The notes beneath the pieces were generated by a model. The model worked only from the letters and a program-made list of their open reading frames with translations. It ran no database searches and had not been told where the DNA came from. Both the position numbers and the translations under genes were made by a program. Below, piece by piece: positions 1 to 17,085 of a stretch of DNA of 47,606 nucleotides; position 1 is the first letter of the stretch, and the number at the start of each line of letters is the position of its first letter. The stretch lies in the IMG/VR virus record IMGVR_UViG_3300042549_007687, positions 1-47,606 of that record; one strand, given 5' to 3'. This stretch comes from a virus.

Positions 1-352
1 TTGCGTACTTGAAATCCATGAAGAATACCAAACCAGCTGGTAAGTTCATTGGTTGTACGGATACGAAATTCTTTGATGCAATTGAACCAAAGACCTTACG
101 GACTAAGGGAAGTGCAACACCGGCCCAGTTTTCACCAGCGGTACCTGTACCGCCTGGGTTTGTTGTTGTTGCTTCCGAAAGAAGTTGTTGTGCTTGATTT
201 TCAAGCATTACTGCCATGCCTTGTTTTTCGTGGCCAGCCAAACCTTCAAGAAGGCCTGACTTGTCCCACTTACCAGCCAATTGGCGTGTCTTTTCGACTA
301 CGACTCTATGCGCTGAACCGGCATCATCTAAAAATTGTTGTACATTTGCCAT
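1..352 (-). CDS. 23: Major capsid protein (gp23-like), N-terminal part, cut by window edge
   Basis: The last gene in the transcription direction; its 3' part lies beyond the left edge, leaving about 117 residues. The start ATG at 352 has AGGAG nine bases upstream. T4 gp23-like features are a KWDKSGLLEG segment, a MLENQAQQLL helix, and a later VQPMNLPAGLVF segment matching the conserved VQPM.SPTG region after the N-terminal arm of gp23. Between them, LLSE followed by ATTTNPGG fits the gp21 cleavage rule (L/I-x-E), at about residue 61; T4 gp23 is cut at residue 65. Gp23 builds the hexamers of the head. The gene directly follows the scaffold gene, as in T4. Confidence 0.9.
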   Translation of the reverse strand, partial: MANVQQFLDDAGSAHRVVVEKTRQLAGKWDKSGLLEGLAGHEKQGMAVMLENQAQQLLSEATTTNPGGTGTAGENWAGVALPLVRKVFGSIASKNFVSVQPMNLPAGLVFFMDFKYA

Positions 353-1703: not shown

Positions 1704-1922
1704 TTACCATTCCGAATTATTTTTCTTTTCTATTTTCTTCTGTTCCCTAATTCTACGGCGGAGCGCTTCTTGTTGTTTTAAAATTTTTTTCTTTGACCGC
1801 TTTACATAAAATTCACGGCGTTTGACTTCATTAATAATTTCTGATTTTTTAACTATCTTGGAAAATTGGCGTAACGCCTTCTCCAGTTCAACCAATCCTT
1901 CCCCTCGTACTTCTACATGCAT
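1704..1922 (-). CDS. rpsU: Phage-encoded ribosomal protein bS21
   Basis: 72 residues, close to the bacterial bS21 length of about 70. The diagnostic core is present: an N-terminal beta strand (MHVEVRGEG), a LEKALRQFSK helix matching the FDxALRRFKR region, and EVKRREFYVK matching the near-invariant EVRRREFYEKP. A long Lys/Arg-rich helical tail follows, as in cellular bS21. In bacteria this protein sits on the 30S platform near the anti-Shine-Dalgarno sequence and affects initiation. A strong GGAGG precedes the ATG by six bases. It lies between the HAD phosphatase and scaffold genes, so it is probably expressed late, perhaps favouring phage late mRNAs. Phage bS21 genes are known; the role here is inferred. 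Confidence 0.88.
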   Translation of the reverse strand: MHVEVRGEGLVELEKALRQFSKIVKKSEIINEVKRREFYVKRSKKKILKQQEALRRRIREQKKIEKKNNSEW

Positions 1923-2624: not shown

Positions 2625-3230
2625 TTATCTCGTTATTAATTTATATGCCGTTGCCACCATTTTTTCGGTTGGAAGTTCCAACATTTTCTTGCGATTATCC
2701 AATGACAATGTACGCAATACTTTGGTTAATAACGCAGCAGTATATACATCTACGGTGACACCATCGATGTCAGCGGCTCGTTTATCTTTTACAATAGAGA
2801 ATATTTTATTTTGCTTTACACTATAATCTTCACTGGTAAAATCTACACGATGCGGATCATTTGAAATATGTGGTTGAGAAGATGTTGCTGGTGGAAAATC
2901 TGGTGTTATACTAGTATCTGTCGTACCAATGGTTTCTTCAACACCGCCACTTGGAATGGTATCAATCGATTGCTGACCAAATGGTTGTGCACCTGTGTCC
3001 GTGTCATCCCCGTGTTGTGCGCCGGCATTAATATCTTGTTTTAACAATTCCGCGATTTTCTTTGGAAGATCTTTTATTGGAGTTGTTGCATACTTTTTCA
3101 CATCACCATGCGACATTGTGTTTGCTAATTTACGAGCAACAGGACTAAACTTTTTGGGATTGGCCTTACCTTTTTGTATAGCATGTACAATTCCAAACAA
3201 TTTTTGTTGTGCCTTTGATATTGCTGGCAT
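2625..3230 (-). CDS. DUF3008-like small protein with disordered middle
   Basis: 201 residues. The N-terminus (MPAISKAQQKLFGIVHAIQKG, later ARKLANTMSHGDVKKYA) resembles the short DUF3008 proteins of bacteria and phages, which start MPAxSKAQQRF and contain a K-D-x-x-x-F/Y-A segment. Residues 70-130 are Gly/Thr/Pro/Gln-rich and probably disordered. A C-terminal domain of about 70 residues follows, with the helix-rich pattern EKMVATAYKL. No function is established. A GGAGAAGTGAA ribosome binding site precedes the ATG. It sits one base from the metallopeptidase stop, so the two are probably co-translated. Confidence 0.6.
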   Translation of the reverse strand: MPAISKAQQKLFGIVHAIQKGKANPKKFSPVARKLANTMSHGDVKKYATTPIKDLPKKIAELLKQDINAGAQHGDDTDTGAQPFGQQSIDTIPSGGVEETIGTTDTSITPDFPPATSSQPHISNDPHRVDFTSEDYSVKQNKIFSIVKDKRAADIDGVTVDVYTAALLTKVLRTLSLDNRKKMLELPTEKMVATAYKLITR

Positions 3231-3231
3231 T

Positions 3232-3594
3232 TCACTTCTCCAAATAGATTTCTGGGTGTTTGTATCGAAACTGCCGCATTAAGCTACCTGCTAGTGCATT
3301 GGCTTCATTTTCCATTGATGACCCATCACGACCATCGGCGTTTTTACCTTGTTCTCGTTGTTTATGATGTACCAATTCGTGACACAATGTACGGCATACA
3401 TCAGCAACATGTCGTGATCCACCATAAATATAAATTTCATTTGTTTCGGTATTATATACACCAAAACTTAAATGTTCCTCAGTAAAACTGACATTGTTAA
3501 CAATAACAATTTTTCGTGGCAACGATTGCAAATCTAATTGCGTTGCCACGAATTTTACAGTTTCATTTAAGAAAAATTTATCTTGCGAATTCAT
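3232..3594 (-). CDS. Zinc metallopeptidase-like protein (HExxH)
   Basis: 120 residues. The zinc-binding motif HELVHHKQ lies at about residues 72-79, where His72 and His76 would bind zinc and Glu73 would be catalytic. ENEANALAG at 95-103 provides a plausible third ligand, giving a minimal gluzincin-like layout. There is no signal peptide, so it would act inside the cell or be carried in the virion. Its neighbours are the prohead protease cluster and a DUF3008-like gene. It could help head maturation or act on host proteins after ejection; the sequence does not say which. The start has no strong ribosome binding site and follows closely on the gene upstream. Confidence 0.7.
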   Translation of the reverse strand: MNSQDKFFLNETVKFVATQLDLQSLPRKIVIVNNVSFTEEHLSFGVYNTETNEIYIYGGSRHVADVCRTLCHELVHHKQREQGKNADGRDGSSMENEANALAGSLMRQFRYKHPEIYLEK

Positions 3595-3906: not shown

Positions 3907-4494
3907 TTATTTAAGTTCACCCAAAAAATCATAAATTAAACTATCAATACGAGAATATGGTGTTATGATTTGACCACCGGTATTTTCGTTAATAAACGCA
4001 CCGTGCGTTGATGGGTTACTTACGATATCAAAACAAATTAAATTAAAATCATCTTGTACTTCTACTTCATTTTCACCAATTTGTTTTACGGAACCCATAC
4101 CACGAGAAGAGACACCCAACCGAATATTGTTTTTAATTAGTTCACGAACAATATTTCCAGATGGAGTAGAAAGAATTTCCATATTTCCTTTTACATCATG
4201 TCCTTCAAACCACATCTCTGTGACATTACAACAAACATTCTTTAAATTAACCACAGCACTTTCTGGATGATCTAATTCACCCAGTGCTCTTCTCTGCGCA
4301 ACAAAGTTGTTTTTGTAAGCTGCTGCTTCACGGGCCAAAATTTCTTTTGGATAAATTCTTCCATTTTGATTTTTAATTTCGGCACGTTGTAATATCACAT
4401 CTTTTAAAATCAATGGTTTTGTTATATCAGCTGCTTCTGTTAACAGCGACATGTCATACGAGATGACATTGTATTCTACAAGTAATGACTGCAT
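3907..4494 (-). CDS. 21: Prohead core protease (gp21-like)
   Basis: Serine protease of the phage prohead family that cleaves scaffold, capsid and internal proteins after L/I-x-E. About 195 residues from the ATG at 4494; an in-frame GTG at 4515 would overlap the upstream gene, so 4494 is preferred. The conserved GRIYP segment is at 45-49, a GELDHP motif carries the probable catalytic His at about residue 76, and SSRGMGS at about 129-135 holds the probable catalytic Ser. LLTE at residues 17-20 is a possible self-cleavage site, as T4 gp21 also processes itself. Order portal, small genes, protease, scaffold, capsid matches T4. Confidence 0.88.
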   Translation of the reverse strand: MQSLLVEYNVISYDMSLLTEAADITKPLILKDVILQRAEIKNQNGRIYPKEILAREAAAYKNNFVAQRRALGELDHPESAVVNLKNVCCNVTEMWFEGHDVKGNMEILSTPSGNIVRELIKNNIRLGVSSRGMGSVKQIGENEVEVQDDFNLICFDIVSNPSTHGAFINENTGGQIITPYSRIDSLIYDFLGELK

Positions 4495-4995: not shown

Positions 4996-5895
4996 TTAAC
5001 TCTTTAAAGTGTCTAATGTCTTGGTAATTTCCAAGGCAATTAACAATGAAGTCATGTGATTTTCTTTGATGATGTTGGCATTGGCGATGCGTTCTAATTG
5101 AGTTATAACTTCAGAAAGTTTAATGCGAGTAATCGTGTTATCAACTTTAACAACTTTGGATTTTAATTCTTTAATAAGAACTTCTGCTTCCTTGGTTGCA
5201 TATTTTTTAAGTTGTTCAGTATTTGATACATTGTAAATATATTCACGAAGTAGATTCTTTTGTCTATCGTTTAATTCTGCGTATTTTTCATTAAATTTTT
5301 CAATTAAAATACGATATGATAATAAGCGTAAATCTTCTTCTTGTCCTTTAATAGTTTCAAACAACTGTACATCATTTTTACTTTCTTTATTAGTAAGATT
5401 ACCAGTGAGGTGTTCTACCATAGTGAATTTTGCAGACACTAAACTTTCAATTTCTGTATAATCTGTCAATTCGTTAATCACTCCATCAAATACTTTGTAT
5501 ACCGATGCGTATACTTTATACGACGGAATACGTGCATTGAGGAAATCTTTCAAATCATAATGATTTTTAATTTCCTTTATTAAGTTGTATTTTTGAGTGT
5601 TTAACAGATGTTCATTTAATTTTTTCCGTTGGTCGGTAATTATACCAATTAAATGAAATGCTTTTTCTTCACTCATTTGTTGCACATTAAAAACTGCCCG
5701 ATACAAAAGTAATTCCTTCCCCAATTCTGTCTTGGAATTAAAAAACTCTCGCATGAGTTTAACCGCTGTATCATTATTGCGGTTTTCTAGTGCGTCGGAG
5801 GTAATTTTACGAACCAATAGTTCGAAAAGAATACCTGTATTACGAATTTTGTTGTGCTTGACGTTTGATTTCATATGTATTCCGTTTTGTGACAT
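4996..5895 (-). CDS. Conserved helical protein between portal and protease genes
   Basis: 299 residues, almost entirely helical, with no signal peptide or membrane segment. The N-terminus KIRNTGILFELLVRKI is followed by repeated charged helices. It occupies the place of T4 gp67/gp68 but is much longer, and I see no recognisable motif. Two starts are possible: ATG at 5895 with a weak GACGG, and ATG at 5874 with GGA seven bases upstream. A perfect TATAAT hexamer sits directly before the 5895 ATG but has no good -35. A core, head or assembly-chaperone role is an inference from position only. Confidence 0.6.
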   Translation of the reverse strand: MSQNGIHMKSNVKHNKIRNTGILFELLVRKITSDALENRNNDTAVKLMREFFNSKTELGKELLLYRAVFNVQQMSEEKAFHLIGIITDQRKKLNEHLLNTQKYNLIKEIKNHYDLKDFLNARIPSYKVYASVYKVFDGVINELTDYTEIESLVSAKFTMVEHLTGNLTNKESKNDVQLFETIKGQEEDLRLLSYRILIEKFNEKYAELNDRQKNLLREYIYNVSNTEQLKKYATKEAEVLIKELKSKVVKVDNTITRIKLSEVITQLERIANANIIKENHMTSLLIALEITKTLDTLKS

Positions 5896-5938: not shown

Positions 5939-7816
5939 TTAGTTTTCTAGCCCCAAAATGTTATTTTCATCTAAAAAAGAACCTGTTGGCGTTGTATTTT
6001 CCAACAAAACCGAATTTTTTGTTTTATTTAACGATCCTTTGTCCAACCACTGTTGCATTTCCAATGTCAATGGTGATTTTCGTTTATCGTTTCGTCGTTT
6101 ACCTACAGTCAACGAATCCATATTTTCTTTATGTCCCAAAGGATCACGCCCCCGTGGATGACTATCTTGCCCATAGGACACACCCTTCTTGGGTCTGCCC
6201 ATGTTAGCCTCCTCCAAATCAACATCTTCCAATTCACTTTCTTCGTCGGATTGGTCTAATGACGCTAGGATACTGTCTACATCGTCAACTTGTTGCTGTT
6301 CTATATCTTCTGGTTCGGGTTGCTCTTCTTCCCCACCGGTAGCCACTTGTTGTGGTTCTTGTGGTTGTTCCAACTTAGTTAATTCCATAACTCGCTTTAC
6401 ATCCTCTACAACTTTTGATCGTTGCGTACTAACATCATCTTCTGACATTTCAAAAATATGATGATATACCCAATCTTGTGAAATTAATTTAGTTCCAATA
6501 AGATCATTTGCCACTGCAACCTTTTCTTTCCACAAGTTCAATTTTTCTTGTTCATACACAATGGATGGTGAAGTTAAACTTAATTCAAAATCAATCAATT
6601 CTTCGTCACGGAATCCTTGAATGTATAAATGAATTATAGCAATCTTTGTTAACTCCGACACCATAATACGCTGAATTCGTTCGATGGTACGAGCAAACCG
6701 TACATCTTGTGCTGCTAATGTCGCCTTACCACTTATACCCTCTTCGTATCCCATAAACGCCTTCGGTACTTTAAAGGCAGCCAATAGTTTGTTACGGAGA
6801 TATTCAATGTCTTCAATCGCATTAAATTGCAACCCAGGAAGATTTTGAATATCGGTACCAGAATCTTTCCCTCGAACAGGAAGATAAAAATCTTCCGTAA
6901 TGTTCATCATATTATATCGAAGATTGTAATCACCGGTCGTTGGATCTACCAATGGAGTTTTTTTCATACGATCCATGATACGATTCATGAAGGTATCAAT
7001 TTCTGCCGGCGGGATATTACCGATATCGACCAAAATCTTACGCTTGTCTGGTGCTCGCATGATACGATGGATTAACATTGCATCTTCCATGAGTTGCAAT
7101 TGCTTCCATACACGGCGACCACCTTCGATCATGGCTTTACCATACGGAAGGAAATTCGTGTCCGCTAATAAACGGAAATGTGCTACTTCAAAACTTTCAA
7201 AATCTTTCTTACCTAATAGCAAGAAATCATTTTCAATTTTAAATCGCACACTGAATGGTTGATCGGGTTGTTCACCCTCAATACGGATGGTTTCGTATAC
7301 CGATAATGGTACTGCATTAACCACTCCGTATTCTTGATCCAAGTCCAAATATAAAAAGAAATCTCCGTACTTTGCCATGTTACGAATCCATGGCCAAAGA
7401 TTAAATTCAATATTTAAAATGTCATAAAATAAATTATGGAGAATATCTTGAACTTGTTGATTTTTTGATTTAATACTTAGAATTTGTCCAAACTCATCTT
7501 TAATAGTACTTTCATCAGCATAAATGTCTAATACCGACGAGATAATAGGATCATTATCCATCATATCATAATCACGGAATAACTGTAATCGTGATCCCTG
7601 AAATGCGGCCGCTGCTTCATATCTACCGTGCGAAGAACCATATCCTCCGGTACCCGATGAGTACACGCGATGATATCTATCAACTCCACGCCGATTAACA
7701 AAGCTTTGTATGTTGTCAGTATCAGCTATTTTTAATTTTTTTCCTCCAACATTACGAACAATGGTACTGGTGGAAAAAAGTTTTTTAAGCCTAGTAAATA
7801 AAGATGTGTCGGACAT
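5939..7816 (-). CDS. 20: Portal vertex protein (gp20-like) with C-terminal extension
   Basis: The dodecameric portal through which DNA enters and leaves the head. 625 residues; T4 gp20 has 524. The conserved portal core is visible: YRVYSSGTGGYG-type N-terminal arm, a DYDMMDNDPIISSVLDIYADE segment, the WPWIRNMAKYGDFFLYLD region, a MMNITEDFYLPVRG segment, and LPGLQFNAIEDIEYLRNKLLAAFKVPKAFMG. The last 140 residues are a Glu/Gln-rich acidic stretch and a basic low-complexity tail. LLE followed by NTTPTG near the end may be a gp21 site. The position upstream of the protease matches T4. Confidence 0.92.
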   Translation of the reverse strand: MSDTSLFTRLKKLFSTSTIVRNVGGKKLKIADTDNIQSFVNRRGVDRYHRVYSSGTGGYGSSHGRYEAAAAFQGSRLQLFRDYDMMDNDPIISSVLDIYADESTIKDEFGQILSIKSKNQQVQDILHNLFYDILNIEFNLWPWIRNMAKYGDFFLYLDLDQEYGVVNAVPLSVYETIRIEGEQPDQPFSVRFKIENDFLLLGKKDFESFEVAHFRLLADTNFLPYGKAMIEGGRRVWKQLQLMEDAMLIHRIMRAPDKRKILVDIGNIPPAEIDTFMNRIMDRMKKTPLVDPTTGDYNLRYNMMNITEDFYLPVRGKDSGTDIQNLPGLQFNAIEDIEYLRNKLLAAFKVPKAFMGYEEGISGKATLAAQDVRFARTIERIQRIMVSELTKIAIIHLYIQGFRDEELIDFELSLTSPSIVYEQEKLNLWKEKVAVANDLIGTKLISQDWVYHHIFEMSEDDVSTQRSKVVEDVKRVMELTKLEQPQEPQQVATGGEEEQPEPEDIEQQQVDDVDSILASLDQSDEESELEDVDLEEANMGRPKKGVSYGQDSHPRGRDPLGHKENMDSLTVGKRRNDKRKSPLTLEMQQWLDKGSLNKTKNSVLLENTTPTGSFLDENNILGLEN

Positions 7817-7826
7817 ATTACCTCAA

Positions 7827-8186
7827 TTAATTAAGAAGACACGACTCACCGATAGCGGCAACTGTCATTTCTGCTAGGTGAGTGTTGGGATTATCCTTGC
7901 CCGTTTTAATAATTTCATTTAACTTGGTGATCAATGTTTGTGCAACACTATCAACTTCTTCTTTAAAGCATGCTTCAAATTGTTCATAGTTGAAAAATCC
8001 ATATTGCATTTTATTTACTTTGGCAACACCTTCTAACAGTGTTGCATATAATTCAGTAATGGACTTCTGTTGTTCCGTCGTCAATGTTGGTATCAACTTT
8101 TCCATTAATGTATCGATACGACCTGTGCTGACGCGTCGTTCTGGAAGTTGATAATTTTCCATTAAAATATTTTTTAACTTAATCAT
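7827..8186 (-). CDS. Small helical protein with MIKL-type N-terminal peptide
   Basis: 119 residues. AAGGAG stands about ten bases before the ATG. The first ten residues, MIKLKNILME, have the hydrophobic-basic pattern shared by several neighbouring small proteins and end with an LxE site. The rest is predicted helical with a PTLTTEQQKSITELYATLLEG helix, an FFNYEQFEACFKEEVD segment and two cysteines. No family recognised. It lies just upstream of the portal gene. It is a candidate internal head protein with a cleavable targeting peptide (inference). Confidence 0.6.
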   Translation of the reverse strand: MIKLKNILMENYQLPERRVSTGRIDTLMEKLIPTLTTEQQKSITELYATLLEGVAKVNKMQYGFFNYEQFEACFKEEVDSVAQTLITKLNEIIKTGKDNPNTHLAEMTVAAIGESCLLN

Positions 8187-8232
8187 TTTATTATTTCTCC
8201 TTGTTCAATACGGTATGCATTTTCTTGACATA

Positions 8233-8796
8233 TCACCACTTACTGCATGACCAGTATCTTGCACTGGTTCTATCCTTTGCCGTAGCACAATTGTGACGAG
8301 CACGGAATGCTTTACGACGAGAGGGGATATTTTTCTTAATCTTCATTGTCTTTTCACCACGGCGTTTTGCCGAAGTACCACCATGACCAAAATTAACTTT
8401 TTTAATATTACCACTACTTGGATCACGAACAAACACTTTGAATTTTTTTACATCTCCTCTCATTGGCTTTCCAAGAGAAACCTTACGACCACGATATTCA
8501 GCTTCTCCTAATTGTTCTGGATGTTTACCTTGTAATACTTCAATTAAACACTCGGTACAATAATCTTCGGTGTCTAATTCCGTATCAGTATTTTCGGAGC
8601 CAAACATTCCTCGTTCACGGTCATGTTCTGTGTCAGGTTTTACATCCATATCGGAAGTTACTTCTGATTCTGGTCTGGTATATAATTCTTTTACAGGAAC
8701 ACAGTTAGGAACCATTTTACCATTTAATTCCTTCATACCTACTTGCTTATATCCATCCCAACAAGATTCGTATAGAATATCTGTTAATCTAACCAT
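8233..8796 (-). CDS. Small protein with paired-Cys basic C-terminus
   Basis: About 187 residues. An upstream in-frame TTG at 8814 is possible, but the ATG at 8796 begins with MVRLTDILYE, matching the N-terminal pattern of its neighbours and ending in an LxE site. A WDGYKQVGMKELNGKMVPNC segment follows, then an acidic disordered middle with CTECL. The strongly basic C-terminal part ends FRARHNCATAKDRTSARYWSCSKW-like (His, two Cys, two Trp), a tail I have seen in proteins of T4-like aquatic phages. The Cys/His pattern could bind zinc or nucleic acid. Function unknown. Confidence 0.6.
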   Translation of the reverse strand: MVRLTDILYESCWDGYKQVGMKELNGKMVPNCVPVKELYTRPESEVTSDMDVKPDTEHDRERGMFGSENTDTELDTEDYCTECLIEVLQGKHPEQLGEAEYRGRKVSLGKPMRGDVKKFKVFVRDPSSGNIKKVNFGHGGTSAKRRGEKTMKIKKNIPSRRKAFRARHNCATAKDRTSARYWSCSKW

Positions 8797-8819
8797 ACTC
8801 GTTCCCAAAGTCAAGAGTT

Positions 8820-9128
8820 TTATTTCTTTTTAAAGGTAGAAACCATCGTTGGTTTTCCACCTGTATTTCCTGCTTTTCTTTTTCTCGTAATAGCTGATCG
8901 TTTCTCTGACTTTGACATAGCTGCGGCTGATCGTGCAGGACGGCATTTTGGATATTTCGCTGATCCGCCCTTCCGTTCTTTTTTACCAGCGGATGCACCG
9001 CACGGAGGATGCTTACCAGTTTTCGGGTCGGTACGAGAAATATCTACCCATTTTTGTTTTAACCACTTACCGAGGTTACCTTTGGGTATATATTTCTCAT
9101 CTAAGATAATATCCATTAATAAAATCAT
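8820..9128 (-). CDS. Small basic Cys-containing protein (DUF5872-like)
   Basis: 102 residues with high Lys/Arg content. The start ATG overlaps the stop of the upstream gene by four bases (ATGA), which supports 9128; an alternative ATG at 9116 has no better binding site. The N-terminus MILLMDIILDE ends in an LxE site. The body has GNLGKWLKQKWVDISR, a PPCGASAGKK segment and YPKCRPARSAAAMSKSEKR, a conserved small-protein pattern I associate with DUF5872, although I cannot verify the accession. The two cysteines flank basic Gly-rich loops. A nucleic-acid binding or packaged protein is plausible, not shown. Confidence 0.6.
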   Translation of the reverse strand: MILLMDIILDEKYIPKGNLGKWLKQKWVDISRTDPKTGKHPPCGASAGKKERKGGSAKYPKCRPARSAAAMSKSEKRSAITRKRKAGNTGGKPTMVSTFKKK

Positions 9129-9490
9129 TTAAGAAAGCGCAACTTGTAAATGGTGGAATTAACCAATGCCAAAATTTCGTCTACAATGTTATTCAAATCA
9201 CTTTCTTGTGGTAATGATTGTCTGTTCATATCAACAAATTTTTGTAATGCCATAAAATATTTTAATACTTGATCATCACCTTCCAAAAACTGATTTGTTG
9301 GTTGGTATCCTGTAATAATTCCATGTCGCCCTTGACATACTTCTACATATTTGTCTATCAAATCTACAATTCCATCATAATAATTATTTAATGCTGCGTG
9401 CATTGCATATGACGATGTTTGTAAATGAAAAATGTGTGCTTGTTCTCTACTACTAAACAAAGTAGAAATAAACTTAGAACGGGAATCCAT
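9125..9490 (-). CDS. Ferritin/Dps-like helical protein (DUF5856-like)
   Basis: 121 residues. A helix with AHIFHLQTSSYAMHAALNNYY, then DGIVDLIDKYVEV, resembles the helix pair of Dps/ferritin-like proteins, where HxxHLQT/NFH and D-x-x-x-D-x-x metal residues occur. The resemblance is in pattern only; it is about 40 residues shorter than Dps. Similar proteins occur in marine T4-like phages under a DUF name (I believe DUF5856). The start overlaps the previous stop by one base (TAATG). Metal binding or DNA protection in the head would be an inference. Confidence 0.5.
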   Translation of the reverse strand: MDSRSKFISTLFSSREQAHIFHLQTSSYAMHAALNNYYDGIVDLIDKYVEVCQGRHGIITGYQPTNQFLEGDDQVLKYFMALQKFVDMNRQSLPQESDLNNIVDEILALVNSTIYKLRFLK

Positions 9491-10149
9491 TACATAGTCC
9501 CCTTTTCTTTATCGGACGGTATTCCCATACCATCTCCCGCCGTTGTGTTTTTATTCTTTTCGTAATCCAGATATTGATAAACGGAAGTAATTTGGTCGGC
9601 TGCCTTGGTAAGTTTGGACTGTACCCACGCTTCCAACCCTTCGTCCTCGCCAATCATATTAAATAGACGGTCAGCAGATTTCTTAATACTCATTAATTGA
9701 GCACGGGCCATATTACCTTCGTAATCACCATCATTTGACGGTTCTTCTGATTCGTCGTCTTCCAGCATTTCGCTGATATGTTCTTTTGACATCGCGGTTT
9801 TAATAGTATCACGACGATTTTTTAAATATTTGTCGGAAGAATCGGTATCACCATCATTATCAATATCGTTATCTTCACGACCAACAGGATCAAGCATTTT
9901 ATTTTCTAGTGCAGAAATAACTTTCAATTGTTCATCGGTTAATCCTAATTCTTCTTTTAACTTACGAAGCGTCATTGCCAAACGGGCACGTTGACCACTC
10001 TTTTTCTCTGTGGTGATACTCTGTTGTTGTTTTACTGCACCTGGTTTTTTACTTGTGGTTTGCATCGGCGTTGTACTTGTTTCGTTGGTCGAACCAACCG
10101 GTGCATTTCCTATTGCGGGGGTGACCACCAATCCTGCTAATCTAATCAT
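9490..10149 (-). CDS. Acidic helical protein with MIRL-type N-terminus
   Basis: About 219 residues. The ATG at 10149 has GGAG seven bases upstream, so it is preferred to an upstream in-frame TTG at 10161. The N-terminus MIRLAGLVV resembles that of its neighbours but lacks a clear LxE. A Ser/Thr/Gln-rich linker follows, then a helix TLRKLKEELGLTDEQLKVISALENKM, and a DNDIDNDGDTDSSDKYL segment that looks like an EF-hand/calcium loop. The acidic C-terminal half has several Glu runs. No family recognised. Confidence 0.55.
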   Translation of the reverse strand: MIRLAGLVVTPAIGNAPVGSTNETSTTPMQTTSKKPGAVKQQQSITTEKKSGQRARLAMTLRKLKEELGLTDEQLKVISALENKMLDPVGREDNDIDNDGDTDSSDKYLKNRRDTIKTAMSKEHISEMLEDDESEEPSNDGDYEGNMARAQLMSIKKSADRLFNMIGEDEGLEAWVQSKLTKAADQITSVYQYLDYEKNKNTTAGDGMGIPSDKEKGTM

Positions 10150-10161
10150 ATACGACTCCAA

Positions 10162-10301
10162 ATATTAATAGATGTATGTTTGTTCTTTCGTTTTGCTACC
10201 AAATATCTTTTATATAAATCACGCTTTTTATCGATCACATCATTATTGATATCTGTGTCTTCTTACTCAATTGGATCATGATGTTTGTATGGATACTTCA
10301 C
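10162..10301 (-). other. 140-base gap with no convincing gene
   Basis: An AT-rich gap between two small genes. On the minus strand a short open frame from GTG codes about 30 residues (VIDKKRDLYKRYLVAKRK and a few more) and ends overlapping the ATG of the next gene. A TAA interrupts the same frame a few codons earlier, which may mean a decayed small gene, but the frame is too short to call. No hairpin or promoter pair was seen. Confidence 0.35.
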
Positions 10302-10631
10302 TTATTCTGCTTTACCACTCCGCCATCCACCACCCATACTTTTGTATTTTTTTGCTGCCCACAAATTTGCGTACGCCGATGGATAAACTTTGAACTTTTG
10401 TCTTGCTGCGGATTTTGCAGCAGACCATTTAGATGGGTTGGTTGGAATACTTTTTTCCAGTACTGCCATTAATTCGGTAATTCGATGCATCATCTTTTCG
10501 TCCGCTTCAACATCGGCATCAGTAACTTCATATCCTCCTGTTGGATATTGTTCGGAGGCATCATGACAATCACATTCTTCACAAATACAATTATCGTATA
10601 CTTCGGTAAAAAATTCTTTATAATTAATCAT
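10302..10631 (-). CDS. Small Cys-rich protein with T4-like targeting peptide
   Basis: 109 residues; its start overlaps the upstream gene by eight bases, implying coupled translation. The N-terminus MINYKEFFTE resembles the capsid-targeting peptide of T4 internal proteins (pattern M-x-x-Y-x-E-F-x-x-E). It is followed by a CICEECDCH cluster with four cysteines and a histidine, possibly metal-binding, an acidic helix, and a C-terminal KWSAAKSAARQKFKVYPSAY, then GGGWRSG. The FKVYPSAYAN pattern recurs in T4-like aquatic phages and has no known function. Confidence 0.6.
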   Translation of the reverse strand: MINYKEFFTEVYDNCICEECDCHDASEQYPTGGYEVTDADVEADEKMMHRITELMAVLEKSIPTNPSKWSAAKSAARQKFKVYPSAYANLWAAKKYKSMGGGWRSGKAE

Positions 10632-10926
10632 CTTTTTTATCTATGGATTTATTGGTAGCAGAAGCATATAAGTATGACTTCCAATCGGCGCCAAATTTCT
10701 TTTTAAAATACGAAACAGCTCGTTTACTGTTCAATAATTTTTTACCAATTCCATCACGACCTTTAACCTGTGGTTTAGTCATTTTCCGTGGAGGTTCACG
10801 ACGAGCAACGGTTCGTTCATCCATCTCGTCTGTACTCGTGGAAACATCATATTCTTGCCCAAATTCTTCTTTTAAAACGCTGAGAATTTCTTCACGAATG
10901 ATTTGTTTTAATTCTTCTTTAGTCAT
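10624..10926 (-). CDS. Small basic protein, helical N-terminus
   Basis: 100 residues. The first 22 residues form a charged amphipathic helix (MTKEELKQIIREEILSVLKEE), resembling the N-terminus of the gene at 4496-4993. The remainder is basic, with EPPRKMTKPQVKGRDGIGKKLL and FKKKFGADWKSYLYASATNK. No family recognised. The start lies six bases after the stop of the 51-residue gene upstream and the stop overlaps the next gene, so these three genes are translated as a block. Confidence 0.55.
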   Translation of the reverse strand: MTKEELKQIIREEILSVLKEEFGQEYDVSTSTDEMDERTVARREPPRKMTKPQVKGRDGIGKKLLNSKRAVSYFKKKFGADWKSYLYASATNKSIDKKDD

Positions 10927-10931
10927 ATCTA

Positions 10932-11087
10932 TTACACCGGTTTAGATTTGGTTTTACCACCACGTTGCCGTTTCTTACGAGCCGCACAATGTGCCTTTTG
11001 GCTAAATCCTTTGGCATTACTACAATTAATTGATTTTTTATATTTTTTGGTCCATATCTCAGGAATTAAATCCATCAGCTTAATCAT
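10932..11087 (-). CDS. 51-residue basic Cys protein (small gene)
   Basis: A short gene read directly from the sequence: ATG at 11087, TAA at 10932, with TTGGAG nine bases upstream. The N-terminus MIKLMDLIPE ends in an IxE site, followed by IWTKKYKKSINCSNAKGFSQ, and a tail with H-C-A-A-R-K-K-R-Q-R-G-G-K ending in KSKPV. The Cys-His-Cys arrangement in a Lys/Arg-rich peptide resembles other small proteins of this cluster. It follows the terminator-like hairpin behind the terminase gene, so it may be the first gene of a late unit. Confidence 0.6.
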   Translation of the reverse strand: MIKLMDLIPEIWTKKYKKSINCSNAKGFSQKAHCAARKKRQRGGKTKSKPV

Positions 11088-11126: not shown

Positions 11127-12713
11127 TTATCCTAATAACCACGAAATATTCTCTTTTTTTCCGTTAATATCCATTTCGTATGGATTTTGTGGCATGTTAT
11201 TGTTCGTAAATACATGACCAACAACATTGTACTTAGTATTGTCCAATGCCATCTTCGTCAGTTCTATGCCCTCCTGGCGCAAACGGAGGGCGGTGTCCCG
11301 CACCCACAGACCAATACACAATGCTATCGTCAAATCATCATTGTATCCAGACAATGCCTCTGGTCTACCATTCTTCCAAATAAAAGTTTCTAACTCAGCA
11401 CACATGCGAGATGATCGAACAGTAAAACTATTATCTAACATATATTCTTTTAATCTAGCAATAATCAATGGACGGGTTCGTTGTGAAGTAGTAAATCCAG
11501 GTACCATACTTTTTTCTTCTGCCCGATATCGTCCTGTCATTTGGTGTTCTACATCGACATATTGTAAATCTTTGGACATATAAAATAGATTCTTATATCC
11601 ACGATCAATCACTTGTTGAATGGCATTCCATCCGATAGAACTATTTTCTGGAATAAGCAGTGCATCGTTATATTCCGTAGCAATTGACACCAGCATGTTA
11701 CCAAACTGCTTGGTTTCTACCTTTCCCTTGTATTCTGCCACCTGCGTGGATGTTTCCACATCAATCACATGGAATGCTGAATAATCTTCTCCGTCCCCTC
11801 TGGCAACGTCGGCGGACACTATATAGGATTTTCCAGGTCGTGGATATTCCCATATCCATGTATTTCCATCAAATCCACCTTTAGTAATCGGTTCTTGAAC
11901 AAAGGTAGTTTTATAAAACTCGATAATTTCAGGAGGAACTACTGTATTACCTGAGAAAATAAATGATGCGTCATGTTCTTGCGCCGCTTGCAGTTCTCCC
12001 ATTAATTCTGTCTGACGGTCACGCCATGCTTGATCTCGTTCTGGGTGTACTCGCCAATCTAACAAAATAGAATTGAAATTATTGGATTTTGTTTCTGCTT
12101 GCTGCCACATTTTGTGAAAGAAATTACCAACACCGTTTGGAGTAGAGAGTAATACAGCCTGACCACCAGTTGACAAAGTACTGGATGCCGCCGTCCAGAT
12201 AATATCAGCATCATCGATAAATGCTGCTTCGTCAAGAATCAAAAGAGACAAGGCTTCGGAACGGCCGGCGTCTTTACTACTTGCGACGGCTTTAATTTGA
12301 GATCCATTTGTAAATTGTAAGGATAATTTGTTATCTGTTACAATTTCACCTCGGAGCCAAACTGGAAGATTCTGATGCATAAATCGAACCTTGGTCACCA
12401 GATTCTTGGCGGTTTCTTGTTTGGTAGCAATAACTAATATATTTTTATCGTTATGAAACAACAACATCCATAGTGCATATCCGGCGACCAATGTGGAAAT
12501 TCCAATCTGGCGACCCTTAAGTACAATATTATAATCGTTATTTCTAAAATCAATTAGTGCATTTTTTTGATAATGATATAAATCAAACAACACTCGTCCA
12601 CGAACAGGATGTTGAATGTATGAATATTTTGTCAAGAAATACGACGGATCTAATGCGCATTTCTTATATTCTTCTTTGATACGATCTCGTAATTGTTGCG
12701 TTGAGGTATTCAT
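11127..12713 (-). CDS. 17: Terminase large subunit (gp17-like)
   Basis: ATP-driven DNA packaging motor and headful nuclease. 528 residues from the ATG at 12713, preceded by AAGGT eight bases upstream and four bases after the previous stop. ATPase: variant Walker A KGRQIGIST at 66-74, Walker B LLILDEAAF at 157-165, with the coupling STPNGVGNFF at 190-199. Nuclease: first metal aspartate in SADVARGDG near 301, then an ENSSIGWNAI segment and a C-terminal GYNDDLTIAL motif supplying the last aspartates. These match T4 gp17. T4 gp16, the small subunit, was not found nearby. Confidence 0.93.
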   Translation of the reverse strand: MNTSTQQLRDRIKEEYKKCALDPSYFLTKYSYIQHPVRGRVLFDLYHYQKNALIDFRNNDYNIVLKGRQIGISTLVAGYALWMLLFHNDKNILVIATKQETAKNLVTKVRFMHQNLPVWLRGEIVTDNKLSLQFTNGSQIKAVASSKDAGRSEALSLLILDEAAFIDDADIIWTAASSTLSTGGQAVLLSTPNGVGNFFHKMWQQAETKSNNFNSILLDWRVHPERDQAWRDRQTELMGELQAAQEHDASFIFSGNTVVPPEIIEFYKTTFVQEPITKGGFDGNTWIWEYPRPGKSYIVSADVARGDGEDYSAFHVIDVETSTQVAEYKGKVETKQFGNMLVSIATEYNDALLIPENSSIGWNAIQQVIDRGYKNLFYMSKDLQYVDVEHQMTGRYRAEEKSMVPGFTTSQRTRPLIIARLKEYMLDNSFTVRSSRMCAELETFIWKNGRPEALSGYNDDLTIALCIGLWVRDTALRLRQEGIELTKMALDNTKYNVVGHVFTNNNMPQNPYEMDINGKKENISWLLG

Positions 12714-12717
12714 ATAT

Positions 12718-13395
12718 TTACCTTGTGACCGCCACTCCAACTACTATTCCGGCCAACACGCCCACCGCCAACGATGTCTTTCGACTCGGTAACGGTATTC
12801 CTAAAAATTTATTTGGATTTTTAGGTGGTGGTGGGAGTTGTTTTAACATAGCCTGTAAACTATCCCCTCGTTGCGTGGCAAATAACAACCCAGTATTAAT
12901 TAATTGTAATTGTTCATCTTTATTACCAATTATCTGTTTTTGGTCAGTGACAATTTCTTCTGTGGTTGTTAGTTGTGTTTTTAAATTACCGATGATGGTA
13001 TCTTGTGTAGCGATCACTACATGTGGAACATCATCGGATTTGGCGTTTATCAAATTTTGTTCTAACGATATTAGTTGTGTTTTACTCTTTTCTTTTTGTT
13101 TTTCCTTAGAAGAAACCGATACATTTAATTGTTGAATAATAACATCTTTCTTTCTTGCACTGTCCGCTAGTTCAAGAATTTGATGTTGTAATGAATCTGC
13201 ATACCGTGTGGTGGTTTGTGCGTTTTCTTTAAATTGTTTGTATTCGGTAATGTATTGATCCATTTTATCCGTACCTTTACAATTTCCCATAGTAAATGCA
13301 AGGAACGCCAACACACCCATAATAACAAGTTGTGCGGTTTGTGGTAATCCTTTAAATGCTTGGGTAGTTTTGATTACCCGGTTAGGTAATTTCAT
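12718..13395 (-). CDS. Membrane coiled-coil protein with two membrane segments
   Basis: About 225 residues. GGAG lies six bases before the ATG at 13395. A hydrophobic segment near residues 24-40 (QLVIMGVLAFLAFTMGNC) ends in a Cys that could be a weak lipobox. A long coiled coil follows from about 45 to 185, with many Gln/Lys/Glu heptads, then a Pro-rich PPPPKNPN hinge and a second hydrophobic segment at the C-terminus (LAVGVLAGIVVGVAV). This layout could span the periplasm, as spanins do, but no spanin family is clearly recognised. Its position between the zinc protein and terminase does not favour lysis. The start overlaps the stop of the gene before it. Confidence 0.55.
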   Translation of the reverse strand: MKLPNRVIKTTQAFKGLPQTAQLVIMGVLAFLAFTMGNCKGTDKMDQYITEYKQFKENAQTTTRYADSLQHQILELADSARKKDVIIQQLNVSVSSKEKQKEKSKTQLISLEQNLINAKSDDVPHVVIATQDTIIGNLKTQLTTTEEIVTDQKQIIGNKDEQLQLINTGLLFATQRGDSLQAMLKQLPPPPKNPNKFLGIPLPSRKTSLAVGVLAGIVVGVAVTR

Positions 13396-13977: not shown

Positions 13978-16900
13978 TTATGTTTTTGCAAATAACATCG
14001 CTCGTTGTTTACTACCAAAATATCGTACTTGATTCTTTTTATTTTTACCACCAAAGTTACCACCTTCAGTTTCCCAGGTTTCTCCGGGTTTGTAAAATGA
14101 TGGATCTTTTGGCTTTGGTGTTTGTTTTTTTGTTCTTGCAACTTTTGGTTTTTCTGGTGATACGGGTTGTTTTGTTTTTACCATCGTCGGTTTTGCTGCG
14201 TTATCACCACCATATTGTTGTGTTAATTTTAATGCTTCTTCGGCGTCGGTGGTAACTTTTACAATTTTTTTAAATACATCTTGATTAAATTTACCATATA
14301 TCATCGTAAAAATTTCTTGTTTTGCTCTGTCCGTAATATTTGGGTCACCCATAATTGCACGGACTTGTGTACCGCTGATATTTTTACCCTTAAGTTGTAA
14401 TTGCATTTCCGGAGCAATAATAAAATATCCTTTATCCGCATATCCCGTTCTTTCTTTTTCAGGAACATCTTCGTAATTTTGAAAATACTTACCACCAGTT
14501 AATCGTTCGGAGTCCTTTTGACTGACTGCTGTAACATATACTGTATCGGATGGTAATTTTTCCAATATTTCTTTTGGTGCATATGGGTTTTTTACTTGTA
14601 CTACTTTATCTTCTGGGATATCAAACATTTGTGTCATAATATCTTTTTTATCAGTAAATCCAAATGGAGATTTTGTTGGGTCAGTTTTGTCTGATGATGC
14701 GATATACACACTATCCTCACCAAATTTTTTCACCAATGCTCTATAAATACTATAGTGACCGGCGTGGAACGGTTGAAATCGACCGGTAAAAATTGCTACG
14801 GTTTGTTTTTTACCAGTTGGTGTGGGTTGCGTTTGTTTGGTCGTTGTTTTTTCTTTTGATGGTTCTTCTGGTTCATCCACAATTTTTGCTTTACCACGAT
14901 CAAATTTCATCATACCCAATATTTGATTCACGGGAGCAAAGGTACCTGTAAATTTATATGGTTTACCATTATACATAAATACAATCCCTTCACTCGGGAC
15001 CACATTTTTTATACCCAAATCATCTAATCTTTCTATTTGTTGTTGCAGTGCCGCTAATTGATTTCTATCACCGGTATCACGGATAGATTTTATAGCGTTT
15101 AACAATTCTTGTTTTAAACTTTCTCCCGCTTCTGGATTATTTGCCGATAACAGGTTGGTTACTCGTTGTAATGTATCTACACCAACCCGTAAGAATACTT
15201 GTTCTAATGGGCGAACACATTGTTTTTGCATATTGACAAGTTGTTCTGCTTCAAATTCACGGAACCACTTTTTAGTTTCCGAATCTTCAAAATCTTTAAC
15301 GCCAATTGCTTTTTTATCTCCAGTTGCCCATCGGTTAATCAATCCATCAAATTGTTCTTCTGATAATTCCAATCCTTGAGTTTCTACTTGTCTTGCAATT
15401 TCTCGTTCCCACCATGTTTTCTTATAATCTTCCAATGTACTCTTATCATCAAGGTCAAATTCGTTTTGTAAACGACCAATTTCTGATCCATACTTTTTTA
15501 ATTTTTCTAAATTTCGAGCGGTATCAGCGTCATTAAACGAAATGACTTGTGGTCCTGATAATCCAAATGTTTGTTGTTGCTGAGCACTCACCCGACGAAG
15601 TTGTGTGTCCAGTACTTTACCATCGTCAATATTTCGTCCAACTTCATTACCATCTTTATCGTATTCAATCGTTCCATGAAATACTATAACAGGTTTGTCG
15701 TATGGAATAACATTTTTTGTATCCGGAAATATAACTTCTACATTCATAAACTTACGACCGTTACCAAACAATTGTTCTCGTTCTTGTTCGGGCAACGCAT
15801 CTACTGCTTTTTGTAAATCTTGCGCTGCACCACCAAAGGATTTTTCAATTGCTCCACGACCAGCAAACATTTGACGAATACCTGCTACATCTAATGCATT
15901 TCGACCAAAGTTTTTAATTTGTCCTTTATTACGAGCAAAGACGACTTGTCCATCTTTAACACTAAAGGTTAAATTTTGGCCGTCGAGTTTTTCGGTGACA
16001 GGTGCCTCAGCATCCAATCCCCCCACCAATCCTCGTTTTATCATTTCCTTAACATCGGTGAATGTTAATTCGTCATCTTCATATGGATGTGCCAAGTGTC
16101 CAGCAGCACCACCTTCTGATATTAATTGCCACGGTCCATTTGGAGCAAGTCCGTCATACAATTCCGATAAATACACATATTCTATATTTTCGTTCTTCTT
16201 ATCTCGCCCGTGGTCTTTTCTTGCTAATTGCCATTTACCACCCGTTGTACCATTTGGATGATGTACATCATGATTTTTCATCTTAGATTTACCATACCGT
16301 TTAACTGCTTTTTTACGATCACTATTACGAGTTACTCTATCGTCTTGTGTTTTTTTAAGATAACTTCGTACTTTTTCTGGGTGTCGCTTATTATATCGAC
16401 GCATTCGTTCTGTGCTTGACAGTGCTTCGGTATTGATGAATTCATCGTCTTGTTCAGGACCAATTGAGTATGGATACACCATTCCTGTTTCATCTTTTTT
16501 TACACTGTTAATATAAGTACGATATACCGCAGCTGCCGACACCTTACCAGCCGCTCGTGCCCGTTGTTCCATAGCTATAGCTGCTTGAATCTTGTGTGCA
16601 TGAGTACGACCACTACGGCGTATCTTGGATACACTTGCCGTAGCATCGTCTACTGTTGCAAATTTTAACCCGTGTATAGTACCTTTGGGATTTTCATCTG
16701 TGTACAGATCACTATGTTTTTTACTGTTGGCTTGTTGTCCTGGTTTTCTTGCCACTCTGTTCTCTTCTTCTACTCCCTCGTCACCACCACCACCATCACC
16801 ACCAGTATCACCACTATCTGTTGGTGGTGTTGGTGGTGTTGGTGGTTCTTCTTTTGGTTGTTCACCAGTTTTCATTATATGTGGATACAAAGGATAGAAA

Positions 16901-17085
16901 AATCCATAGCGTTTAATTTTTTGTTTAGCTTTTTTACGCTTTTTGTTTGCTTCTTCTAAAGTATCGGCAGTAGTGATAGATAATTCTTCCACAAGATCAG
17001 GTGCGAGTTTTTCGACCAAAAAATTGTGTTGCTCAATATAATCATTTAATATTACTACTTGTTCAAAAAGTTTATCTAAATTCAT
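13978..17085 (-). CDS. HNH-like / polynucleotide-ligase-like / nucleotidylyltransferase fusion protein
   Basis: 1,035 residues in three parts. N-terminal 1-300: a helical start, a Pro/Gly/Asp-rich linker (80-110), then a His-rich HDVHHPNG motif at about 272-279 with DHGRD near 291, possibly an HNH-type nuclease. Middle 330-740: ligase-superfamily motifs, namely motif I EKLDGQN with the candidate adenylated Lys366, FARNKGQ (motif Ib-like) at 383, FMNVEVIFP (III), SEGIVF (IV) near 698 and KFTG (V) near 711. C-terminal 760-930: a nucleotidylyltransferase fold with GRFQPFHAGH at 768-777 and ISGTQVR at 903-909, as in NMN adenylyltransferases. Its ATG overlaps the previous stop by four bases. Substrate unknown. 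Confidence 0.78.
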   Translation of the reverse strand: MNLDKLFEQVVILNDYIEQHNFLVEKLAPDLVEELSITTADTLEEANKKRKKAKQKIKRYGFFYPLYPHIMKTGEQPKEEPPTPPTPPTDSGDTGGDGGGGDEGVEEENRVARKPGQQANSKKHSDLYTDENPKGTIHGLKFATVDDATASVSKIRRSGRTHAHKIQAAIAMEQRARAAGKVSAAAVYRTYINSVKKDETGMVYPYSIGPEQDDEFINTEALSSTERMRRYNKRHPEKVRSYLKKTQDDRVTRNSDRKKAVKRYGKSKMKNHDVHHPNGTTGGKWQLARKDHGRDKKNENIEYVYLSELYDGLAPNGPWQLISEGGAAGHLAHPYEDDELTFTDVKEMIKRGLVGGLDAEAPVTEKLDGQNLTFSVKDGQVVFARNKGQIKNFGRNALDVAGIRQMFAGRGAIEKSFGGAAQDLQKAVDALPEQEREQLFGNGRKFMNVEVIFPDTKNVIPYDKPVIVFHGTIEYDKDGNEVGRNIDDGKVLDTQLRRVSAQQQQTFGLSGPQVISFNDADTARNLEKLKKYGSEIGRLQNEFDLDDKSTLEDYKKTWWEREIARQVETQGLELSEEQFDGLINRWATGDKKAIGVKDFEDSETKKWFREFEAEQLVNMQKQCVRPLEQVFLRVGVDTLQRVTNLLSANNPEAGESLKQELLNAIKSIRDTGDRNQLAALQQQIERLDDLGIKNVVPSEGIVFMYNGKPYKFTGTFAPVNQILGMMKFDRGKAKIVDEPEEPSKEKTTTKQTQPTPTGKKQTVAIFTGRFQPFHAGHYSIYRALVKKFGEDSVYIASSDKTDPTKSPFGFTDKKDIMTQMFDIPEDKVVQVKNPYAPKEILEKLPSDTVYVTAVSQKDSERLTGGKYFQNYEDVPEKERTGYADKGYFIIAPEMQLQLKGKNISGTQVRAIMGDPNITDRAKQEIFTMIYGKFNQDVFKKIVKVTTDAEEALKLTQQYGGDNAAKPTMVKTKQPVSPEKPKVARTKKQTPKPKDPSFYKPGETWETEGGNFGGKNKKNQVRYFGSKQRAMLFAKT

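What the first reader, a model, noticed from the sequence alone, without database searches (positions are those of the whole stretch)
7827..11087. Shared cleavable N-terminal peptides mark a candidate internal-head-protein cargo set
Sequence: small proteins between terminase and portal begin with similar short hydrophobic-basic peptides ending in LxE, IxE or a near variant: MIKLMDLIPE (10932-11087), MINYKEFFTE (10302-10631), MILLMDIILDE (8820-9128), MVRLTDILYE (8233-8796), MIKLKNILME (7827-8186), with weaker cases MIRLAGLVV (9490-10149) and a charged helix at 10624-10926. Knowledge: T4 internal proteins carry an N-terminal capsid targeting sequence, cleaved by gp21 after L/I-x-E, and enter the head; MINYKEFFTE is close to that pattern. 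A gp21-like protease is encoded at 3907-4494. Inference: these small, often basic proteins are loaded into the prohead and delivered to the host, so they could be host-takeover effectors of unknown function.
Basis: partly seen in the sequence, partly recalled or inferred. Interest (0 to 1): 0.85.

Follow-up and report, generated by a model that had tools for sequence, protein, structure and literature searches.

The report
Protease-cleavable cargo tags in phage heads
An uncultured T4-like phage, and its relatives from lakes and seas, appear to mark a set of unrelated small proteins with a short N-terminal peptide that the head protease should cut off inside the forming head, and the same cut-site pattern also separates the small basic modules inside these proteins, which suggests that many unexplained phage genes encode ready-to-trim head cargo.

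Summary
Five unrelated ORFs between terminase and portal begin with M(I/V)xLxDLLxE-like peptides. Across relatives, 105 of 106 distinct N-termini of these five families keep [LIVMF]xE at residues 6-14; portal, DUF5856 and several other neighbours have none. The phage encodes a Peptidase S77 (gp21-type) protease, and its capsid protein carries the matching site QLLSE|A. A regex fixed on this lineage was tested on the published virion proteome of cyanophage S-CREM2: all five tagged non-structural proteins were detected in virions and no undetected protein was tagged (p=3e-5). A second cyanophage gave mixed results.

New here: the same [LIV]xE site sits exactly at the start of small basic modules inside multi-domain proteins (43/49 and 44/46 unrelated upstream contexts; shuffled maximum 8). 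In phages without S77 the same modules are stand-alone genes that start with Met at that point. I propose CTS-targeted, protease-punctuated head cargo.

The "host-takeover effector" reading is weak for these modules: they are basic, shared by phages of unrelated hosts, and three of the five protease-less phages examined carry them beside head genes. DNA-associated internal virion proteins are more likely. Cleavage and packaging are inferred; neither was shown for this phage.

The parts
11058..11087 (-). N-terminal tag MIKLMDLIPE of ORF 10932-11087; predicted cut after Glu10
   Evidence: cyanophage Bellamy homologue has MKSFKQFQE in the same place on a 69% identical protein
10932..11057 (-). 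Basic module 'KYKKSINCSNxKGFSQKAHC' (net charge +14 in 40 residues)
10602..10631 (-). N-terminal tag MINYKEFFTE of ORF 10302-10631
   Evidence: LxE in 26/26 distinct orthologue N-termini
10455..10457 (-). Predicted internal cut site MAVLE|KSIPTNP (Glu59) before the YPSAYA module
   Evidence: LxE at this exact offset in 43 of 49 independent upstream contexts
10302..10454 (-). YPSAYA module (net +10); stand-alone Met-start gene in phages without S77
9096..9128 (-). N-terminal tag MILLMDIILDE of ORF 8820-9128
   Evidence: LxE in 20/20 distinct orthologue N-termini
8820..9095 (-). Basic module of phrog_23735 (net +23); tag-less in podophage HTVC023P
8767..8796 (-). N-terminal tag MVRLTDILYE of ORF 8233-8796
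   Evidence: Glu10 invariant in 33 orthologues although residues before it vary in length (MIRLTDILCE or MENLTE)
8503..8505 (-). Predicted internal cut site QLGE|AEYRG (Glu98) before dom2
   Evidence: L96, E98 and A99 invariant; 44 of 46 independent contexts
8233..8502 (-). dom2, phrog_7595 (FRARHNC...ARYWSCKxW), net +22; stand-alone gene MAKYQG... or MATYKG... in S77-less phages
8157..8186 (-). N-terminal tag MIKLKNILME of ORF 7827-8186
   Evidence: Met1 and Glu10 are among six invariant columns in a 36-sequence alignment reaching down to 23% identity
7827..8156 (-). Acidic helical-bundle body, conserved just upstream of the portal gene
   Evidence: AlphaFold2 pLDDT 81, pTM 0.71; tag is a separate short helix before a low-confidence linker; no significant fold match
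3907..4494 (-). Prohead protease, Peptidase S77 (gp21 type), with own site SLLTE|A (Glu20, 4435-4437)
   Evidence: PF03420 E=4e-29, phrog_207 E=3e-51; site conserved in relatives
2..352 (-). Start of the major capsid protein with maturation site QAQQLLSE|ATTT (Glu60)
   Evidence: QLL[SQN]E|[AN] in 36 of 37 relatives' capsid ORFs; corresponds by position and motif to T4 gp23 SFLTE|A
3562..3594 (-). Tag-like start MNSQDKFFLNE of the metallopeptidase 3232-3594
   Evidence: orthologues have MRLKALLNE|N or no tag on homologous bodies; PF06114/DUF6782
17062..17085 (-). Candidate tag MNLDKLFE of the cytidylyltransferase-like protein 13978-17085
   Evidence: conserved; homologues with tags MKKFSAFLNE, MKSFLQFLKE, MKNFSSFLTE are in cyanophage virions

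Best explanation
These are internal head cargo proteins. Inferred mechanism: the roughly 10-residue N-terminal peptide (short amphipathic helix ending in [LIF]xE) docks each protein onto the prohead scaffold, as the T4 capsid-targeting sequence does. The S77 protease then cuts after the Glu when it matures the capsid (QLLSE|A) and itself (SLLTE|A). It also cuts the same motif between modules of multi-domain cargo, separating linkers (strongly acidic for dom2) from small basic modules. The trimmed basic modules probably stay with the packaged DNA. Shown: the peptides, their conservation, the match to the capsid and protease sites, the exact placement of LxE at module boundaries, tag-less forms in five phages without S77, and tagged proteins in published virion proteomes of related phages. 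Inferred: packaging and cleavage in this phage, DNA association, and ejection.
For: LxE retained in 105/106 distinct N-termini of five families, 0 in portal, DUF5856 and other neighbours. Bodies mutually unrelated. Family 7827: Glu10 invariant down to 23% identity. Capsid site QLL[SQN]E|[AN] and protease site LLxE|A conserved in relatives. S77 in all 20 genomes of the tagged (T4-like) group, absent from five phages that carry the same modules untagged. The same module carries MIKLMDLIPE here and MKSFKQFQE, a T4-like tag, in Bellamy. In S-CREM2 the pre-set tag regex marks 5 non-structural proteins, all 5 detected in virions, against 0 of 167 undetected (p=3e-5; data PMC10665884). T4 IPII, IPIII and gp24, known gp21 substrates, match the regex. 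Module boundaries: 43/49 and 44/46 independent contexts have LxE at one exact offset, shuffled mean about 2 and maximum 8. P1 is E in 92-96%, P3 is L/I/V, P2 and P4-P10 largely free, as expected for a protease site. Both S-CREM2 non-structural proteins carrying these modules are virion-detected.
Against: No virion or N-terminal proteomics exists for this phage. In S-SCSM1 the regex hit three annotated proteins among those inspected: NMNAT (detected), ORF30 MKTFKQFMSE (not detected) and a RecA-like protein (not detected, probably a chance hit). A looser regex is not significant in S-CREM2 (p=0.11). Many IMG/VR contigs with LxE-bounded modules show no S77; they also lack gp23, so they are probably fragments, but this is not proven. 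dom2 residues just after the site (AEYxG) are conserved for their own sake, so part of the boundary signal could be structural. Upstream acidity is clear for dom2 (43/45) but not for YPSAYA (24/48).
Confidence: 0.82

Rival explanations
1. The tagged proteins are prohead core or scaffold components like T4 gp67 and gp68: they help assembly and are then largely degraded by the protease, rather than being cargo kept in the head.
For: They lie in the head operon. 7827-8186 is acidic, helical and adjacent to the portal, with further LxE sites inside (IDTLME, ATLLE). T4 gp67, gp68 and gp22 also have LxE near the N-terminus.
Against: The basic modules of 10932 and 8820 have no internal LxE after the tag and would survive. 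Tagged proteins and module-bearing proteins are found in mature S-CREM2 virions.
Confidence: 0.12
2. The tag is a scaffold- or portal-docking helix that is never cleaved; LxE is part of the docking surface or of the module folds.
For: The predicted tag is a short helix, and residues after the boundary are conserved.
Against: Stand-alone versions lack LxE and start with Met there. P2 is free while P1 and P3 are fixed. The motif equals the lineage's capsid maturation site.
Confidence: 0.08
3. One reading: the bodies are host-takeover effectors delivered on infection.
For: T4 IPI and Alt are ejected and act on the host (PMC3012670, PMC7411985). The same tag type is found on SAM hydrolase, kinase and NMN adenylyltransferase in cyanophage virions.
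Against: The modules here are shared by phages of unrelated hosts, three of the five S77-less phages carry them beside head genes, and several are strongly basic, which fits DNA association better. No enzymatic domain was found in the five bodies.
Confidence: 0.2
4. Chance or compositional similarity of gene starts.
For: Short hydrophobic starts are common; a loose pattern matches many genes.
Against: Conservation across 105/106 N-termini against none in several neighbours; exact-offset LxE at module boundaries.
Confidence: 0.02

Closest known systems
T4 capsid-targeting sequence of internal proteins IPI, IPII, IPIII and Alt, cut by gp21 (Mullaney and Black 1996, cited in PMC7411985; PMC3012670)
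   Same: Short N-terminal peptide ending in [LI]xE on otherwise unrelated proteins; S77 prohead protease with the same motif in the capsid protein; T4 IPII and IPIII match the regex set on this window.
   Different: Different peptide sequence (MIKLxDLLxE, not MKTYQEFIAE); clustered between terminase and portal; bodies are a distinct set of basic modules; LxE also between modules inside single proteins.
SPN3US / phiKZ-type ejection proteins cleaved by prohead protease gp245 at AxE (PMC7411985)
   Same: Many head-packaged proteins with protease-removed propeptides.
   Different: Long propeptides (over 100 residues), AxE motif, no shared short tag.
Polyvalent proteins and phage P1 DdrB (Iyer et al. 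2017, PMC5512222)
   Same: Multi-domain proteins delivered with the virion and thought to be cut into units.
   Different: There the peptidase is an embedded metallopeptidase domain; here the proposed cutter is the separate prohead protease, and the modules are tiny.
Cyanophage virion-associated enzymes (NMNAT/cytidylyltransferase, SAM hydrolase, APH kinase, Cas9; PMC10665884, PMC9602691)
   Same: Carry MKxFxxFLxE starts (Cas9 carries it a little inside) and are detected in virions; relative of the window's 13978-17085 protein.
   Different: In the passages read, the papers note packaging but no shared tag; the S-CREM2 paper has no occurrence of 'N-termin'.

Membership tests
T4-type capsid-targeting sequence / internal head proteins | N-terminal peptide of about 10-20 residues ending in [LI]xE shared by unrelated proteins | tested here: met
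T4-type capsid-targeting sequence / internal head proteins | gp21-type S77 protease encoded, with matching maturation site in the major capsid protein | tested here: met
T4-type capsid-targeting sequence / internal head proteins | Tagged protein is found in the mature head | tested here: inconclusive
   Not testable for this phage. By published mass spectrometry: S-CREM2 5/5 tagged proteins detected; S-SCSM1 mixed
T4-type capsid-targeting sequence / internal head proteins | Peptide removed after the Glu during prohead maturation | not testable with these tools
   needs N-terminal proteomics
T4-type capsid-targeting sequence / internal head proteins | Protein is ejected into the host | not testable with these tools
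   -
T4-type capsid-targeting sequence / internal head proteins | Body homologous to IPI-III or Alt | tested here: not met
   No such Pfam or PHROG match for any body. T4 IPs are themselves diverse behind a shared tag (PMC3012670), so this weighs little
Peptidase S77 prohead protease | Match above the Pfam curated cut-off | tested here: met
   PF03420, 102 bits against cut-off 27
Polyvalent proteins (Iyer et al. 2017) | Embedded peptidase domain in the multi-domain protein | tested here: not met
   No peptidase domain in the five bodies

The most novel reading that the evidence does not exclude
Across T4-like phages of aquatic bacteria, the prohead protease motif punctuates a mobile set of tiny basic modules. 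Multi-domain proteins are head polyproteins: a targeting tag and sometimes an acidic linker carry the modules into the prohead, and the separate S77 protease releases them onto the packaged DNA. Phages without this protease carry the same modules as separate genes.
Probability: 0.65. Interest if true: 0.85.

Novelty: new variant of a known kind. Interest (0 to 1): 0.74.

Why it matters
If true, one short pattern predicts which genes of unknown function in a large group of uncultured and cultured aquatic T4-like phages encode proteins inside the head, and where they are cut. It links enzymes repeatedly seen in cyanophage virions (NMN adenylyltransferase, SAM hydrolase, kinase, possibly Cas9) to a packaging route, and it gives natural sorting tags for loading proteins into phage heads of aquatic bacteria. 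It also explains why the same tiny basic modules appear fused and LxE-bounded in some phages and as free genes in others.

Tried and rejected
AlphaFold2 of 8233-8796 gave a poor model (pLDDT 45), not used. The model of 7827-8186 is good, but Foldseek finds no significant match in PDB or viral libraries. Megablast of the window against cultured phages: no hit. A looser tag regex was too permissive. S-SM1 annotation does not mark mass-spectrometry-detected proteins, so it could not serve as a test set. A greedy ORF caller missed real tagged genes in G001, so tags there were found by scanning every ATG. I considered using S77 absence in IMG/VR contigs as negative evidence and rejected it: none of those contigs has gp23 either. 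General acidity upstream of modules as a rule was rejected for YPSAYA. 9490-10149 and 10624-10926 were not accepted as tagged.
Full report
WHAT THE WINDOW IS. The window is a virus record of 47.6 kb read mostly on the minus strand. In reading order it has a cytidylyltransferase-like protein (13978-17085), terminase (11127-12740), the small ORFs of the finding, the portal (5939-7816), a Peptidase S77 protease (3907-4494), a scaffold-like protein (373-1590) and the first 117 codons of the major capsid protein (2-352). The nearest cultured phages by portal are Microcystis phage Mel-JY01 and Flavobacterium phage immuto, at about 50% identity. IMG/VR gave 80 related loci.

OBSERVATION. The five peptides are at the stated coordinates. 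A strict pattern, ^M..[LFYIM].{2,3}[LIFVM][LIFVM].E, was written when I first scanned the relatives and kept unchanged. It hits 5 of 49 ORF starts of the window against 1 of 187 internal Met positions, p=0.0016. The bodies have no significant mutual similarity. In 80 relatives, LxE with the Glu at residue 6-14 occurs in 105 of 106 distinct N-termini of the five families; shuffling gives 1.4-8.7 per family. Portal, DUF5856, 4996-5895, HAD and DUF3008 neighbours have none. In family 7827, Met1 and Glu10 are among only six invariant columns of 36 sequences reaching down to 23% identity. In family 8233, Glu10 is invariant although the residues before it vary from MIRLTDILC to MENLT. A metallopeptidase (3232-3594) has orthologues with MRLKALLNE and orthologues without a tag on homologous bodies.

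THE PROTEASE AND ITS SITES. The capsid protein has QAQQLLSE|ATTT, which corresponds by position and motif to T4 gp23 SFLTE|A. The motif QLL[SQN]E|[AN] holds in 36 of 37 relatives' capsid ORFs, and LLxE|A in the protease's own N-terminus. Cargo tags end in the same L/I-x-E.

NATURAL CONTROLS. The same module that follows the tag MIKLMDLIPE here follows MKSFKQFQE in cyanophage Bellamy, a T4-like tag on a 69% identical protein. Five phages that carry the modules without any tag, HTVC023P, HTVC202P, DSL-LC04, Aegir and CRP-902, have no S77 match. All 20 genomes of the tagged, T4-like group do.

TEST AGAINST VIRION PROTEOMES. Cyanophage S-CREM2's virion proteome is published (PMC10665884 Table 3). 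The unchanged regex marks five of its 193 non-structural proteins: SAM hydrolase MKDFDSFLEE, APH kinase VKRFDAFLTE, cytidylyltransferase MKNFSSFLTE, ORF13 MKDLHSFLTE and ORF136 MQTFSMFFSE. All five were detected in virions; none of the 167 undetected proteins has the tag (Fisher p=3e-5). The paper's text has no occurrence of 'N-termin'. In S-SCSM1 the result is mixed: NMNAT (MKSFLQFLKE) is tagged and detected (PMC9602691), ORF30 (MKTFKQFMSE) is tagged and not detected, and a RecA-like protein is probably a chance match. S-SM1's cytidylyltransferase, detected in virions (PMC3037559), begins MKKFSAFLNE. T4 IPII, IPIII and gp24 match the regex.

PUNCTUATION BETWEEN MODULES. The modules also occur inside longer proteins. 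There [LIVMF]xE stands at one exact place before the module: P1 at -1 for dom2 (AEYxGRxV...FRARHNC) and at -4 before the PTNPxxW of the YPSAYA module, in 92% of distinct fused sequences each; background per site is 3-7%. Counting only upstream contexts less than 50% identical over 30 residues, it is 43 of 49 (YPSAYA) and 44 of 46 (dom2); shuffles average about 2 with a maximum of 8 in 1000. P1 is Glu in 92-96%, P3 is L/I/V, and P2 and P4-P10 are largely unconstrained. Stand-alone genes begin with Met at the same point (MAKYQG, MATYKG, MAKVNKPTKP, MASPKPTNP). In two sets totalling 81 contigs, every contig with gp23 has S77; contigs lacking S77 also lack gp23, so they give no counter-example and no support. 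The segment before dom2 is acidic (mean -9 in 40 residues, negative in 43/45) and dom2 basic (mean +18). For YPSAYA the upstream acidity is absent in half. Both non-structural S-CREM2 proteins with these modules are virion-detected.

HOW IT PROBABLY WORKS. Docking to the scaffold through the tag and trimming by S77 follow T4 (PMC7411985, PMC3012670). Cutting between modules is inferred from site placement. DNA association of the basic modules is inferred from charge, from wide sharing among phages of unrelated hosts and from neighbours: HTVC023P, DSL-LC04 and Aegir carry them near structural or head genes, while in HTVC202P and CRP-902 the setting is not clearly structural. Host-takeover functions are not excluded but are not favoured for these bodies. 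The member 7827-8186, acidic and helical with further LxE sites, could be a core protein that is degraded.

LIMITS. Nothing here shows cleavage or packaging in this phage. The S-CREM2 test concerns a distant relative. Fragmentary contigs prevent a clean S77 correlation. Parts of the dom2 boundary signal may be structural. The literature search covered open-access PMC papers only.

Noticed in passing
L114: 7704-10313 (S-CREM2 Cas9): The virion-detected Cas9 has a tag-like RFASFMAE|A about 25 residues in and ends KTFRDFLN; S-SCSM1 virion protein ORF93 ends RTFKEFLEYIE. Tag-like sequences may also work internally or at C-termini.
   Followed up: no
window 13978-17085: 1035-residue protein with a cytidylyltransferase-like domain (PF01467), an EKLDGQN motif like a ligase/nucleotidyltransferase lysine motif, and the SKKHSDLYTDEN module shared with cyanophage proteins; relatives are in cyanophage virions.
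   Followed up: partly
window 2625-3230: N-terminal DUF3008 domain; S-SCSM1 ORF93, detected in virions by mass spectrometry, begins with a similar MPAVSKAQQRF sequence.
   Followed up: partly
window 1704-1922: Ribosomal protein S21 homologue (phrog_21469) in the head gene cluster, conserved in relatives; Mel-JY01 has one in a similar place.
   Followed up: no
window 10624-10926; L081 several genes: A second N-terminal type, M(T/K)K(S/D/E)xLxxIIRxEL, recurs on several genes here and in phage immuto (MKKSQLREIIRKEL and others); function unknown.
   Followed up: no
L150, L153, L191 (also L149, L156, L195, L197): One lineage has LFD|A instead of LxE|A before dom2; does its protease cut after Asp?
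   Followed up: no
window 9490-10149: DIDNDGDTDSSDKYLKNRR motif like a calcium-binding loop, also in several cyanophage and pelagiphage proteins.
   Followed up: no
window 9125-9490: DUF5856 / phrog_858 protein inside the tagged cluster, with no LxE start in 17 distinct orthologue N-termini.
   Followed up: partly
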